This document shows positions 16,511 through 63,313 of a DNA stretch of 64,000 nucleotides, piece after piece (positions within the stretch are counted from its first letter, which is position 1; every line of letters begins with the position of its first letter). A program made the position numbers and the translations under genes. The stretch is from Bacteroidales bacterium. GTDB lineage: Bacteria; Bacteroidota; Bacteroidia; Bacteroidales; FEN-979. Where the stretch lies: assembly GCA_028706295.1 (NCBI GenBank), contig JAQWBQ010000008.1, positions 1 to 64,000 of the forward strand, written 5' to 3'. Below the pieces are notes generated by a model. The model searched no databases, was not told the origin of the DNA, and was given only the letters and a program-made list of their open reading frames with translations.

Positions 16511-17947
16511 TTATAATTTGATCCGCTTGTCAAGCTCCTCGACAAACTGCCGGAACTGCTTATCCGTTTCGACAAGATTGTTAACCGTGCGGCAGGCATG
16601 CAAAACGGTCGCGTGGTCCTTATTTCCGCAATGCAATCCGATACTGGCAAGAGAGGCTTTGGTGTGCTTTTTCGAAAAATACATCGAAAGCTGACGGGCC
16701 TGAACGATCTCTCTTTTCCGGGTCTTTGAATGGATCATCTCAACAGGTATGTTGAAATAATCGCAAACGACCTTCTGAATATAATCAATGGAGATCTCGC
16801 GGGAAGTGTTTTTAACGAATTTGTCGATCATCTGTTTGGCCAGATCAAGCGTGATGATCTTTTTATTCAGCGAGGATTGTGCCAATAAAGAAATGAGTGC
16901 GCCTTCAAGCTCACGGATGTTTGTATTGATGTTATATGCCAGATATTCCACAACCTCGCCTGGGATCTGGATCCCATCATTGTAAAGCTTTTTATGCAGG
17001 ATGGCTATTCGGGTCTCCAGATCAGGTACCTGAAGGTCGGCCGACAATCCCCATTTAAAGCGTGATAACAACCTGGGCTCAATTCCCTTCATCTCCACAG
17101 GTGGTTTATCACTGGTCAGAATGATCTGATTACTTTTTTGATGCAAATGATTGAAAATGTGAAAGAAAACATCCTGAGTCTTCTCCTTTCCGGCAAGATT
17201 ATGAATATCATCAAGAATCAGAACATCGATCATCTGGTAAAAATGAATAAAATCATTCTGGTTGTTGTTCCTGACCGAATCAATAAACTGGTTGGTGAAT
17301 TGATCGGTGGTAACATAAAGCACGGTCTTCTCGGGAGCATTATTCTTGACCTGTAACCCGATGGCATGGGAAAGGTGCGTCTTTCCAAGCCCGGTCTGAC
17401 TGTATATCAAAAGGGGATTGAAGGCAGTCTTGCCCGGATTGCTGGCAACTGCAAAACCTGCCGATCGGGCCAGACGGTTACAATCACCCTCAATAAAATT
17501 CTCAAAAGAGTAACTTTCAATCAATTGAGAATTCACCTTGATCTTTTTCAATCCGGGAATAATGAACGGATTGGGAATTTCTTTTGAGCTACCTCTGTTT
17601 AAATCAATTGGCATAGATACCGGTGGATTAATAGTAGCTTTCTTTTCTCCAGTTGGTACTTTAATGGTATAGGGACCGGGATCGTGGTCTGAATTATCAA
17701 CAATGATACTGTATTCAAGCCTTCCCTCAACACCAAGTTCCTTTTTTATGGTCTTCTTTAATAATCCGATATAATGTTCCTCAAGCCATTCATAAAAGAA
17801 CTGACTTGGAACCTGAATCGTCAAAACACTATCTTTTAACCTAATAGCATTTATGGGCAAGAACCAGGTCTTGAAACTTTGATACGGTATGTTATCTTTG
17901 ATGACTTTGAGGCAATTTTCCCAAACTTCAACAGCTTCTTTTTCCAT
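16511..17947 (-). CDS. dnaA: Chromosomal replication initiator DnaA
   Basis: 478-residue AAA+ initiator that binds DnaA boxes and opens the origin. Domain I starts at MEKEAVEVWENCLKVIKDN. Walker A is SQTGLGKT (183-190) and Walker B LILDD (243-247). The DNA-binding domain IV carries KHTKASLASIGLHCGNKDHA. An ATG 19 codons upstream (18004) is in frame, but the extra leader is not typical of DnaA, so the ATG at 17947 is preferred. It is the first gene of a minus-strand series of six. The upstream gap has inverted repeats and an AT-rich block. Confidence 0.95.
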   Translation of the reverse strand: MEKEAVEVWENCLKVIKDNIPYQSFKTWFLPINAIRLKDSVLTIQVPSQFFYEWLEEHYIGLLKKTIKKELGVEGRLEYSIIVDNSDHDPGPYTIKVPTGEKKATINPPVSMPIDLNRGSSKEIPNPFIIPGLKKIKVNSQLIESYSFENFIEGDCNRLARSAGFAVASNPGKTAFNPLLIYSQTGLGKTHLSHAIGLQVKNNAPEKTVLYVTTDQFTNQFIDSVRNNNQNDFIHFYQMIDVLILDDIHNLAGKEKTQDVFFHIFNHLHQKSNQIILTSDKPPVEMKGIEPRLLSRFKWGLSADLQVPDLETRIAILHKKLYNDGIQIPGEVVEYLAYNINTNIRELEGALISLLAQSSLNKKIITLDLAKQMIDKFVKNTSREISIDYIQKVVCDYFNIPVEMIHSKTRKREIVQARQLSMYFSKKHTKASLASIGLHCGNKDHATVLHACRTVNNLVETDKQFRQFVEELDKRIKL

Positions 17948-18151
17948 TAATGCAGGTAACCTTGAGAGATTCGTGGTAAGATAATTTTGTTCGCTAATTA
18001 TCAAGTATTTAGAAATTGATTTGAAATCAAAATTCTAAGATGAACGGTCATTTTGAATAATTAACAAAATTTGGAAAAAAAAGTTTATAAAAAAAATTTT
18101 TCAAGCTTGATTTATTAAAATAAAAATATAAAATACGACTGCTTTTCAGAC

Positions 18152-61608: not shown

Positions 61609-62373
61609 ATGAAAGAATCAACTTTCTATCTGCTCGTGTATCTTTGGATAGCCATTGCACTGGTTTCATTTCCTTTTATACTCAAAATTGCTGCCCCGTA
61701 TGGAAGACATGCTTCAAAACGATGGGGTGGCATGATTGACAACCGGATCGGATGGATTATCATGGAGTTACCTGCTTTAATTGTGTTTGCAGGTTTTTAT
61801 ATTTTTGGAACAGGAGCGCATCCACCCGTTACCTGGGTCTTTTTCGGATTTTGGGTTTTTCATTATATAAACCGTACCCTCATTTTTCCTTTCAGATTAC
61901 GGACTAAAGGAAAAAAAATGCCACTGGCAATAGTTCTCATGGCAATTTTCTTCAACCTCGTAAATGGCTCCATCAATGGATATTTTCTGGGAACAATTGC
62001 AACTGAAGCGAGATATCCCCTGTCATATTTTGGAGATCCCAGATTCATAGCCGGGGTAGTATTTTTTATTTCAGGGTTAGCAATTAACTGGAACTCCGAT
62101 TATATTTTAATTCATTTAAGAAAACTCGGGGAATCAGGCTATGTCATTCCTCAAAAAGGATTGTTCAAATACATCTCCTGCCCGAATCATTTCGGAGAGA
62201 TTGTTGAATGGTCGGGATTTGCACTGATGACATGGTGTTCACCTGCACTAGCTTTTGCTATGTGGACCATGGTAAACTTACTACCCCGGGCATTGCACCA
62301 TCACAAATGGTATCAGACTACCTTTCCGGAATATCCTCCAGAGAGAAAAGCGGTTATCCCATTTATCCTGTAA
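61609..62373 (+). CDS. Steroid 5-alpha-reductase family membrane protein
   Basis: 254 residues with about six membrane helices. It has the C-terminal family pattern KGLFKYISCPNHFGEIVEWSG, then HHHKWYQTTFPEYPPERKAVIPFIL, as in 3-oxo-5-alpha-steroid 4-dehydrogenases. HYINRTLIFPFRLRTKGK is also typical. It should reduce a double bond next to a keto group using NADPH. The natural substrate is unknown. Operon partner of the SDR upstream. Confidence 0.87.
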   Translation: MKESTFYLLVYLWIAIALVSFPFILKIAAPYGRHASKRWGGMIDNRIGWIIMELPALIVFAGFYIFGTGAHPPVTWVFFGFWVFHYINRTLIFPFRLRTKGKKMPLAIVLMAIFFNLVNGSINGYFLGTIATEARYPLSYFGDPRFIAGVVFFISGLAINWNSDYILIHLRKLGESGYVIPQKGLFKYISCPNHFGEIVEWSGFALMTWCSPALAFAMWTMVNLLPRALHHHKWYQTTFPEYPPERKAVIPFIL

Positions 62374-62394
62374 TCCGGCGCTGTATAATTTTGT

Positions 62395-62436
62395 AATCCA
62401 GAACCGATTTTTGATTTTTTACCAGGTTTTTGGATT
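62395..62436 (+). terminator. Possible weak terminator hairpin after the 5-alpha-reductase gene
   Basis: AATCCA (62395-62400) with AACC (62402-62405) pairs with GGTT (62425-62428) and TGGATT (62431-62436) around a T-rich loop. No clean U-run follows, so this is tentative. Confidence 0.3.
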
Positions 62437-62446
62437 GAACCTCTTT

Positions 62447-62795
62447 CAGACCACTATATAACAACGATGGGAACCTCCTCTGGCCGAAGCTGTTCCCATC
62501 CCGCATCCAGTCGACCGTAGTCTTCCGGGGCGTCCAAGCTACAGTTATTGTGGGTGATCTTCTCAGTCAGGGTCTCCCCTTTCTGTTCGTTCCGGCTTCC
62601 GGTTTGAAAAATCCTTTCGGATCCATCTCCCTTTCGTCCCCGCTGTGAACTCCCCCGTGTTGTCGGCACCTTTCGGAGCGTGACTTATCGGGCTTTGCCA
62701 GGAGTGCATGTCGCCTTTCGGTTCCTGCTTTCACCAGCGTGTTTTCCAGCGTCCCTTTTATCTCTCGCTTGAGTTTCCAAATATACTGCAGACCA
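62447..62795. repeat. 7-bp direct repeats bracketing the GC-rich islet
   Basis: CAGACCA occurs at 62447-62453 and 62789-62795, just outside the GC-rich segment. It could be a target-site duplication or chance. A second short direct repeat CCAGCGT (62734-62740, 62746-62752) is internal. Confidence 0.35.
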
Positions 62796-62800
62796 TACAG
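62447..62800 (-). ncRNA. Candidate structured non-coding RNA of unknown family (GC-rich islet)
   Basis: This 595-bp gap (62374-62968) has no supported gene. 62461-62760 is about 56 % GC (167 of 300 counted), while 62840-62960 is strongly AT-rich. On the minus strand it shows tetraloop-capped hairpins: ATCC-GAAA-GGAT (62611-62622), two more CC-GAAA-GG loops (62666-62679 and near 62715-62722) and a C(UUCG)G loop. The UUCG lies inside a long stem closed by 9 bp, GATGGGAAC (62466-62474) with GTTCCCATC (62492-62500). GAAA and UUCG loops appear only in the minus reading, which sets the strand. CAGACCA repeats directly at both edges (62447-62453, 62789-62795). No group II domain V, RNase P, tmRNA or SRP signature was found. 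Ends are approximate. Confidence 0.5.
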
Positions 62801-62968
62801 GTAAAGCAAGTTTCAATCTCAGCAGTTACCAACTCCCTTTCAACAAATGTTTTAAACAAAATGTTAATAAACAATTTTTTTAATATATTTATTTACAGAA
62901 TATTAGAACAATCAAAAAGGATTGTGTTAATAAAATGTCAGTAAGTTGTTAGTAGGAAAAATTCTTAA

Positions 62969-63241
62969 TTATTCGATTGTTACTGTTAAACCGCGAACGG
63001 TCATCTCTTCGAACAGGGGTTTAATTTCATCATAATCACCGCTTTTAACTGCACATTTTCCCGTGTAATGGGCTATGAGTGCGCACTGTTCAGCTTGTAT
63101 AGGTTCATGATTGCAGATTTCGATCAGCGATTGAATTACGAAATCAAACGTATTCACATCATCATTATACAATACCAGATTTTTTGGAATAAGGTCCTTT
63201 GTAAAGGGATGTGATACTGGTCGGTTTTCTTCTGCTGGCAT
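62969..63241 (-). CDS. clpS: Clp protease adaptor ClpS
   Basis: 90 residues. LVLYNDDVNTFDFVIQSLIE matches the ClpS core that binds N-degron side chains, followed by CALIAHYTGKCAVKSG and a C-terminal beta strand. It would deliver N-end-rule substrates to the ClpC/ClpP machine; clpC is in this window at 52758. Divergent from the Nudix gene with overlapping promoters. Confidence 0.93.
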   Translation of the reverse strand: MPAEENRPVSHPFTKDLIPKNLVLYNDDVNTFDFVIQSLIEICNHEPIQAEQCALIAHYTGKCAVKSGDYDEIKPLFEEMTVRGLTVTIE

Positions 63242-63260
63242 GAGTAAATTTTATTTGCCA

Positions 63261-63291
63261 CAAAGTTAAGCATTAACAAGCCAAACCAATA
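63261..63291 (-). promoter_or_regulatory. Promoter of clpS
   Basis: The minus strand reads TAACTTTG at 63261-63268, with TTG at 63287-63289 18 bp upstream. The ATG at 63241 is 19 bp downstream. Confidence 0.6.
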
Positions 63292-63297
63292 ACTTTG
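63290..63297 (+). promoter_or_regulatory. -7 promoter element of the Nudix gene
   Basis: TAACTTTG, 16 bp before the ATG at 63314. It overlaps the -33 zone of the divergent clpS promoter. Confidence 0.55.
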
Positions 63298-63313
63298 GTA
63301 AAAAAAGAAGCAT

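What the first reader, a model, noticed from the sequence alone, without database searches (positions are those of the whole stretch)
62447..62800. GC-rich, tetraloop-studded islet: possible undescribed structured RNA or RNA-based mobile element
A non-coding gap holds about 330 bp at roughly 56 % GC inside AT-rich flanks. Read on the minus strand it contains several GAAA-capped hairpins, a UUCG-capped arm within a 9-bp closing stem, and short internal repeats. Both edges carry CAGACCA in direct orientation. The loop types occur only in one reading direction, which favours an RNA on the minus strand. I could not match it to tmRNA, RNase P, SRP, 6S or group II domain V by eye. A 5' group II-type intron remnant or an IscB/HEARO-like RNA is a possible alternative.
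Basis: partly seen in the sequence, partly recalled or inferred. Interest (0 to 1): 0.75.

Follow-up and report, generated by a model that had tools for sequence, protein, structure and literature searches.

The report
Likely DnaA-controlled RNA gene in Bacteroidota
This stretch of DNA matches a conserved, likely folded, non-protein RNA that many Bacteroidales bacteria share and that the RNA catalogue searched here does not contain; its promoter region carries DnaA-box-like sites, so it is predicted to be controlled by DnaA, the protein that starts chromosome copying, which would tie an unknown RNA to the bacterial cell cycle.

Summary
The islet is real and the minus-strand RNA reading is right. 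It belongs to a vertically inherited RNA family (about 320 nt here). 18 relatives were aligned with it; covariance models match 85 and 92 of 393 Bacteroidales genomes and, more diverged, two further groups of the class. No Rfam family matches the RNA. Covariation is strong: 21 of 22 pairs of the 3' core change on both sides, and two long-range helices join the 5' and 3' cores. It is not protein coding and shows no sign of mobility; the CAGACCA repeat is not conserved.

The surprise lies upstream. A Bacteroidota-type promoter is preceded by an array of DnaA-box-like 9-mers, 72-74 bp before the -7 element in 46 of 46 rows. In a sister group, 4 of 5 arrays hold canonical DnaA boxes. In 30 whole genomes, 19 of 21 perfect palindromes of this array lie beside the RNA. 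DnaA control of the RNA is my best reading; transcription, DnaA binding and the RNA's function are untested. A replication-origin reading is not supported.

The parts
62456..62773 (-). Structured RNA gene (predicted transcript; start inferred from the promoter, end from the terminator-like hairpin and T-rich tail)
   Evidence: R1 match 62458-62785 E 6.6e-105 (the window row is in the model); 18 aligned homologues; covariation; no conserved frame
62862..62870 (-). Box 1, TTATTAACA (DnaA-box-like, the only one of the four matching TTATNMACA exactly in this genome)
   Evidence: Invariant or nearly invariant block in 46 rows; coordinates
62850..62858 (-). Box 2, TGTTTAAAA, inverted to box 1 (degenerate here; TGTTAATAA exactly in 31 of 46 rows)
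62837..62845 (-). Box 3 position, TGTTGAAAG (degenerate here)
62826..62834 (-). Box 4 position, AGTTGGTAA (degenerate here)
62807..62809 (-). -33 promoter element TTG
   Evidence: A TTG lies 20-21 bp before TAnnTTTG in 46 of 46 rows; coordinates; Bacteroidota promoter consensus recalled
62778..62785 (-). -7 promoter element TATATTTG (TAnnTTTG)
   Evidence: TA and TTTG invariant in 46 of 46 rows
62767..62771 (-). 5' strand of P1 (CAAGC)
   Evidence: Pairs with 62535-62539; 212 of 220 cells paired, 20 with both sides changed
62756..62762 (-). Conserved single-stranded 5' core GATAAAA
62753..62755 (-). 5' strand of P2 (GGG)
   Evidence: Pairs with 62552-62554; 123 of 132 cells paired, 15 with both sides changed
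62570..62752 (-). Variable inner domain with GNRA-capped hairpins
   Evidence: length and sequence vary between families; approximate limits
62552..62554 (-). 3' strand of P2 (CCC)
62544..62549 (-). Conserved 3' core AATAAC
   Evidence: AAC invariant in 45 of 45 rows
62535..62539 (-). 3' strand of P1 (GCTTG)
62508..62527 (-). Hairpin P3
   Evidence: 7 pairs, all with changes on both sides
62466..62500 (-). Terminator-like hairpin
   Evidence: 15 pairs, 14 with changes on both sides
62456..62465 (-). T-rich tail

Best explanation
The islet is the gene of a conserved, likely structured, non-protein-coding RNA of about 320 nt on the minus strand, predicted to be transcribed from its own Bacteroidota-type promoter and likely controlled by the replication initiator DnaA through an array of DnaA-box-like sites at a near-fixed distance upstream. 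Shown by sequence: homology, covariation, loss of reading frame, conserved promoter and box geometry, conserved synteny within the family. Inferred: that DnaA (ATP-DnaA, which rises and falls with replication; recalled) is the protein that binds the array and sets the promoter's activity. Inferred further: the RNA folds so that P1 and P2 bring the conserved single-stranded cores GAUAAAA and AAUAAC together, while a fast-changing inner domain with GNRA hairpins acts as a scaffold. The core would then bind a partner (protein or RNA), so that the RNA's dose reports the state of DnaA. The partner and the direction of control (activation or repression) are unknown.
For: RNA: 18 homologues aligned with the window (19 rows), lengths 326-343 nt. 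In A2, 20 of 42 pairs change on both sides, against 11.9 in shuffles, 0 of 500 reaching it. In A4, 21 of 22 pairs, 91% of cells paired against 34-54% when slid. P1/P2 in 44 rows: 0 of 2000 row shuffles reach the observed double changes. 118 of 128 pairwise indels against the window row are not multiples of three. 85 of 393 (R1) and 92 of 393 (R3) genomes of the order match, the window's own included. DnaA: box 2 lies 72-74 bp before the -7 element in 46 of 46 rows and has at most 2 mismatches to TGTTAATAA in 45; the boxes were not part of R1, which found the order loci. TTATNMACA boxes (a pattern chosen after seeing the alignment): 83 in 44 upstream windows, 43 windows with at least one, shuffled mean 1.6; in 8 windows of f128/f121, canonical TTATCCACA 6 times in 5 windows, shuffled mean 0.02. 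L182 (f128) has five box-like 9-mers at an exact 12-bp period, one being TGTGGATAA. Perfect inverted repeat: 21 sites in 30 whole genomes (29 of them RNA carriers), 19 sites beside the RNA (RNA places). DnaA recognition motif DHATV in 12 of 12 genomes read from Bacteroidales and f124, DHSTV in 5 of 5 from f121/f128; box position 6 is A in 90 of 94 sites of the first two groups and C in 9 of 14 of the last two. dnaA lies within 200 kb of the RNA or box element on the same contig in 9 of 17 genomes, 46 kb in the window's own. dnaG lies convergent within the 1.5-kb flank downstream of the RNA in 12 of 27 other Bacteroidales loci.
Against: No expression or binding data were available. The window's own array is weak: only box 1 of four fits TTATNMACA, and 44 Bacteroidales windows hold 0 canonical TTATCCACA. 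A palindrome nearly unique per genome would equally suit a dedicated dimeric regulator, and 10 of the 29 carriers searched lack the perfect form. The box/DnaA-residue correlation is not clean: f121 has DHSTV but 4 of 5 sites of the A type, DnaA was read in only some of the genomes whose boxes were counted, and sites within clades are not independent. The f124 loci and L182 were found with R2, which contains the box array, so boxes there are partly by construction; the other f128 and all f121 loci were also found by R3 without boxes. dnaA is far or on another contig in 7 of 17 genomes, and in one (G487) the element itself is uncertain. The fold of the window sequence alone is not significant. 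301 (R3) to 308 (R1) of 393 order genomes gave no match, so the RNA is not universal in the order, or the models miss diverged forms.
Confidence: 0.6

Rival explanations
1. Structured RNA gene controlled by a dedicated dimeric transcription factor (not DnaA) that binds the 20-21-bp inverted repeat GTTATTAACAA(n)TTGTTAATAAC.
For: The perfect inverted repeat is nearly unique per genome (21 sites in 30 genomes, 19 at the RNA), as expected of a one-target regulator; symmetric halves.
Against: The array continues beyond the palindrome with TGT[GT]nATAn sites; in f128 the palindrome is replaced by direct repeats with canonical DnaA boxes in 4 of 5 windows. Among the nearest ORFs of 25 loci I saw no regulator gene shared across families, though only neighbours were looked at and L182 has a TetR-like ORF by eye.
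Confidence: 0.25
2. The array is the chromosomal origin (oriC) and the RNA is an origin-linked transcript that helps open or prime it.
For: DnaA-box cluster beside a 22-24% GC stretch; gyrA at 55.6-58.1 kb and dnaA at 16.5-18.0 kb in the window; skew goes from negative to positive across the RNA in C83 and G020 and to less negative in G197; dnaG within 1.5 kb downstream in 12 of 27 loci.
Against: The C83 change is not exceptional within its contig (23-31% of positions show a larger one). Skew turns the other way at the RNA in G128 and G136, within 100 kb of it in G342, within about 0.4 Mb in G689 and near the box element in G656, while G628 shows no switch at its element; G336 is unclear. rRNA operons of six f124 genomes point toward the element. 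PMC4755523 (passages) reports that oriC in Bacteroidetes is commonly far from dnaA. The array keeps its distance to a promoter, which an origin need not do.
Confidence: 0.08
3. A diverged version of a known housekeeping or large RNA (RNase P, tmRNA, 6S, SRP, group II intron, HEARO, OLE, ROOL, GOLLD) that Rfam models fail to recognise.
For: Housekeeping-like features: own promoter, terminator-like end, vertical inheritance.
Against: No cmscan match at gathering scores in the window or 20 order loci; in 20 wider loci 10 matches, all Flavo-1 or L19-leader hits outside the RNA or element; best match in 62380-62960 has E 2.2. ARAGORN finds no tmRNA. A separate RNase P RNA with E 7.2e-82 exists in the same genome.
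Confidence: 0.05

Closest known systems
Large ornate bacterial RNAs (OLE, ROOL, GOLLD; raiA motif; PMC12286853, passages read)
   Same: Large, conserved, multi-hairpin noncoding RNA with its own gene and unclear core function
   Different: No Rfam match; smaller here (about 320 nt); promoter with a near-fixed DnaA-box-like array
Bacteroidetes RNA motifs of Weinberg 2010 (Bacteroidales-1 RF01693, Bacteroides-1 RF01694, Flavo-1 RF01705, 6S-flavo RF01685; PMC2864571, passages read)
   Same: Structured RNAs of the same phylum found by comparative genomics
   Different: None of their Rfam families matches the window or 20 order loci; Bacteroides-2 and GUCCY-hairpin, shown without an Rfam number, could not be tested
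Rfp RNAs of Flavobacterium psychrophilum (PMC9723704, passages read)
   Same: Newly mapped independent transcripts, some conserved, in the same phylum
   Different: Coordinates are in a supplement I could not read, so identity with the flavobacterial rplS-linked element is untested
DnaA-box clusters outside oriC (datA, DARS of E. coli; DnaA-controlled promoters; recalled)
   Same: Clustered DnaA boxes at one chromosomal locus
   Different: Here the cluster sits at near-fixed distance from the promoter of a structured RNA

Membership tests
RNase P RNA (RF00010) | Covariance-model match | tested here: not met
   No match in window; genuine copy on contig C32
tmRNA, 6S (RF00013/RF01685), SRP RNA | Covariance-model match (tmRNA also by ARAGORN) | tested here: not met
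   No match at gathering score in the window or 20 order loci; ARAGORN 0 genes in 62000-63300
Group II intron / HEARO (IscB-linked) RNA | Covariance-model match and mobile or nuclease context | tested here: not met
   No Rfam match; family-conserved synteny with clpS and a steroid-dehydrogenase-like gene
OLE, ROOL, GOLLD, raiA | Covariance-model match (as far as each is in Rfam 15) | tested here: not met
   No match in the window or 20 order loci; none among the 10 matches of 20 wider loci
Structured noncoding RNA (general) | Compensatory changes beyond shuffles and slid controls | tested here: met
Structured noncoding RNA (general) | No conserved reading frame | tested here: met
   118 of 128 pairwise indels not multiples of 3; longest stop-free runs 40-108 codons in 19 rows
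Structured noncoding RNA (general) | Transcribed | not testable with these tools
   No RNA-seq; only promoter and terminator-like sequence
DnaA-controlled promoter | DnaA-box-like sites more than chance at conserved distance | tested here: met
DnaA-controlled promoter | Canonical TTATCCACA in the window's own array | tested here: not met
   0 canonical in 44 Bacteroidales windows; box 1 is TTATTAACA
DnaA-controlled promoter | DnaA binds and alters transcription | not testable with these tools
   -
oriC | Lies at the GC-skew minimum | tested here: inconclusive
   Both kinds of switch seen

The most novel reading that the evidence does not exclude
A class-wide replication-state RNA: in Bacteroidia, DnaA directly switches a large structured RNA from a dedicated box array, and that RNA feeds back on replication or growth. 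Box sequence and DnaA's recognition residue may have co-evolved at this one promoter, and the flavobacterial rplS-linked element with several hundred nt of non-coding sequence behind it would be the same system, diverged.
Probability: 0.35. Interest if true: 0.95.

Novelty: new variant of a known kind. Interest (0 to 1): 0.8.

Why it matters
A conserved RNA class without an Rfam match, found in 22-23% of 393 sampled Bacteroidales genomes and in sister groups, is notable by itself. If DnaA controls it, it would be a rare link (as far as I recall) between the bacterial replication initiator and a structural RNA, and it would make cell-cycle control in Bacteroidota testable with simple binding and deletion tests.

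Tried and rejected
Mobile element: no plasmid or phage blastn match of the window's RNA and no exact core-pattern match in IMG/VR; synteny kept; CAGACCA repeat not conserved. Protein gene: rejected. RNase P: elsewhere in the genome. oriC: mixed skew, dropped to a rival. Pattern hit L039 (labelled Gammaproteobacteria) judged chance by eye. Short R1 hits of about 35 nt on the opposite strand are the terminator-like hairpin read backwards.

Rows left out: L006 (truncated) from all alignments; near-duplicates L002 (kept in A2), L058, L059 and the second copy of L070 from A4, A5 and the pair and box counts; the second copy of L078 from A4 and the counts (kept in A5); L032 (inner deletion) from A4 and the counts, kept in A5 and unknown when A2 was made. 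L079 was left out of A5 and the P1/P2 and box counts because at the place R1 gives, no 5' core or box array is seen; one search has a second short match about 180 bp further up in that genome (G377), so its 5' end may be displaced, but I did not follow it: it counts as a miss. In some searches the 3' core was found by a pattern that fixes letter classes on the P1 3' strand, so its pairing level is partly by construction, its covariation less so. The R1 alignment A3 was not used for pair counts. One search stopped on a missing file and one search was an empty script. A1 had wrongly cut window coordinates and was replaced by A2. Of the 30 genomes, G063 is not a carrier and was included by mistake.

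Full report
Observation. The GC-rich islet and its one-sided GNRA loops are there. Folding the minus strand alone gives z -1.72, the plus strand +0.81, so by itself the window would be only suggestive. The CAGACCA pair at the edges is exact but not conserved in relatives.

Homologues. A DNA search of 199 genomes including the window's own, followed by local re-alignment, gave 18 relatives of the same genus or family that align over most of the RNA, plus one truncated locus, L006, left out. It added three RNA loci not in the first set: L032, L034 and L040. A covariance model R1 from 19 rows matched 85 of 393 genomes of the order, 50 of 207 genera; a model R3 of the 3' core matched 92 of 393, 51 of 207 genera. 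R3 is part of what R1 covers, so the two are not independent, and E-values of both are rough. In the phylum sample of 395 genomes R3 matched 8, one of them the window's own; four are f128 and three f121. For all four f128 (G506, G541, G616, G624) and, weakly, one f121 genome (G805, 12.8 bits) the upstream/5' model R2 matched beside the 3' core; for G689 and G552 it did not, and joining 5' and 3' parts there rests on my reading of the sequence. A fifth f128 genome (L182, G748) has R2 and a 25.7-bit R3 match in the same locus, but not in the stricter.

Structure. In A2, 20 of 42 predicted pairs change on both sides against 11.9 expected from shuffles. In A4 it is 21 of 22, with 91% of cells paired against 34-54% when slid. 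These structures came from RNAalifold on the same alignments, which favours them over the slid versions; the shuffles do not correct for relatedness. Two long-range helices close the RNA: P1 (CAAGY with RCUUG) and P2 (GGC with GYC and equivalents); in 44 rows the observed double changes (20 and 15) were reached by 0 of 2000 row shuffles. The inner domain varies in length and sequence between families. L032 lacks much of it (245-nt match against about 330) yet keeps both cores.

Promoter and box array. Upstream of the RNA, 46 aligned rows share a Bacteroidota-type promoter (consensus recalled): TTG, 20-21 bp, TAnnTTTG in 46 of 46 rows. Further up lies the block GTTATTAACAA(n)TTGTTAATAAC followed by two more TGT[GT]nATAn-like sites. 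Box 2 starts 73 bp before the -7 element in 43 rows, 72 in 2 and 74 in 1; it is TGTTAATAA exactly in 31 rows, with 1-2 mismatches in 14, and unrecognisable in one, L075. The order loci were found with R1, which starts at the -7 element, so the boxes were not selected for. TTATNMACA-type boxes (a pattern chosen after seeing the alignment) number 83 in 44 windows (shuffled mean 1.6). In f128/f121, canonical TTATCCACA occurs 6 times in 5 of 8 windows (shuffled mean 0.02): 4 of 5 f128 windows and 1 of 3 f121. L182 carries five box-like 9-mers with starts exactly 12 bp apart, among them TGTGGATAA, a pattern I recall from DnaA arrays. Of 30 whole genomes searched with the strict palindrome, 19 have it, at 21 places, and 19 of these places are the RNA's upstream region; the reversed control pattern occurs at one place (G144). 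Eleven genomes have no perfect palindrome, the window's own and nine other carriers among them, and one (G063) that is no carrier. The window's DnaA (16511-18004, minus) has DHATV at the recognition helix (helix assignment recalled), as do 11 other DnaA read from Bacteroidales and f124, while 5 from f121/f128 have DHSTV. Box position 6 differs in the same direction (A in 90 of 94 sites against 5 of 14; Fisher p 3e-7, sites not independent). Against this, f121 has DHSTV with 4 of 5 A-type sites, and the genomes read for DnaA are only partly those counted for boxes.

Neighbourhood. In the window's family, clpS is found in 21 of 22 loci, the steroid-dehydrogenase-like gene in 20 and the NUDIX gene in 20 (domains). 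In 27 other Bacteroidales loci, dnaG lies convergent within the 1.5-kb flank in 12 (at the far edge of it in L063 and L066) and a RelA/SpoT gene in 4; several of these loci come from the same families. dnaA is on the same contig within 200 kb of the RNA or element in 9 of 17 genomes, farther in 3, on another contig in 4, and unclear in G487. 11 of the 92 R3-positive genomes have two matches; in G197 two copies, each with its own array, start 484 bp apart.

Wider relatives. In flavobacteria-like f124 genomes, R2 finds boxes plus promoter. Of 13 such loci examined from f124 and other families, 9 lie just downstream of rplS, followed by several hundred bases without a conserved ORF and, by eye, a terminator-like hairpin. 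These loci were found by a model that contains the array. I could not show that this is the same RNA: R3 does not match it, and Rfam finds there only Flavo-1 and L19-leader matches outside the element.

Replication geography. Skew across the RNA goes from negative to positive in C83 and G020, to less negative in G197, is unclear in G336, and goes from positive to negative in G136 and G128. In G342 such a positive-to-negative switch lies within 100 kb, in G689 within about 0.4 Mb, and near the element in G656; in G628 there is none at the element. rRNA operons in six f124 genomes point toward the element. I therefore do not claim an origin.

Mechanism. Most likely DnaA binds the array and sets transcription of the RNA; the RNA's conserved core, held by P1/P2, would act with an unknown partner. 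Only sequence evidence supports this. Literature: term searches listed no paper whose title or abstract start describes this RNA; I read passages of four papers and no supplement, and the library holds only part of the literature.

Noticed in passing
L167, L169, L170, L172, L174, L175, L176, L178, L181: Flavobacteria-like genomes carry the same kind of box array plus promoter directly downstream of rplS, followed by several hundred nt without a conserved ORF and a terminator-like hairpin before (in several, by my reading) an isocitrate-dehydrogenase-like gene; possibly a diverged counterpart RNA.
   Followed up: partly
L055-L058, L060-L063, L066, L067, L071, L078: In 12 of 27 other Bacteroidales loci dnaG (DNA primase) lies downstream of and convergent with the RNA within 1.5 kb.
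   Followed up: partly
window 16511-18004: DnaA with DHATV instead of DHTTV (E. coli form recalled) at the recognition helix; all 12 DnaA read from Bacteroidales and f124 share it.
   Followed up: partly
L168, L180: The f128 version of the RNA is about 620 nt and repeats GAGACGGGYAACCGCAGAAGTGC-like units several times.
   Followed up: no
L032 2442-2686: A copy that lacks much of the inner domain but keeps both cores and the promoter array (natural variant or assembly error).
   Followed up: no
G326:C167:8363 and G158:C865:19834: Perfect palindromes away from the known RNA copies of these genomes; not examined for a further RNA.
   Followed up: no
L042 (SACF01000013.1): MAG contig labelled Alphaproteobacteria has the length of the contig of the 97%-identical relative and the same RNA, so it looks like a mislabelled Bacteroidales genome.
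   Followed up: no
G628, G548, G533, G656, G459, G564: rRNA operons in these f124 genomes point toward the box element, and the dnaA gene lies within 32 kb of the element in four of the six.
   Followed up: partly
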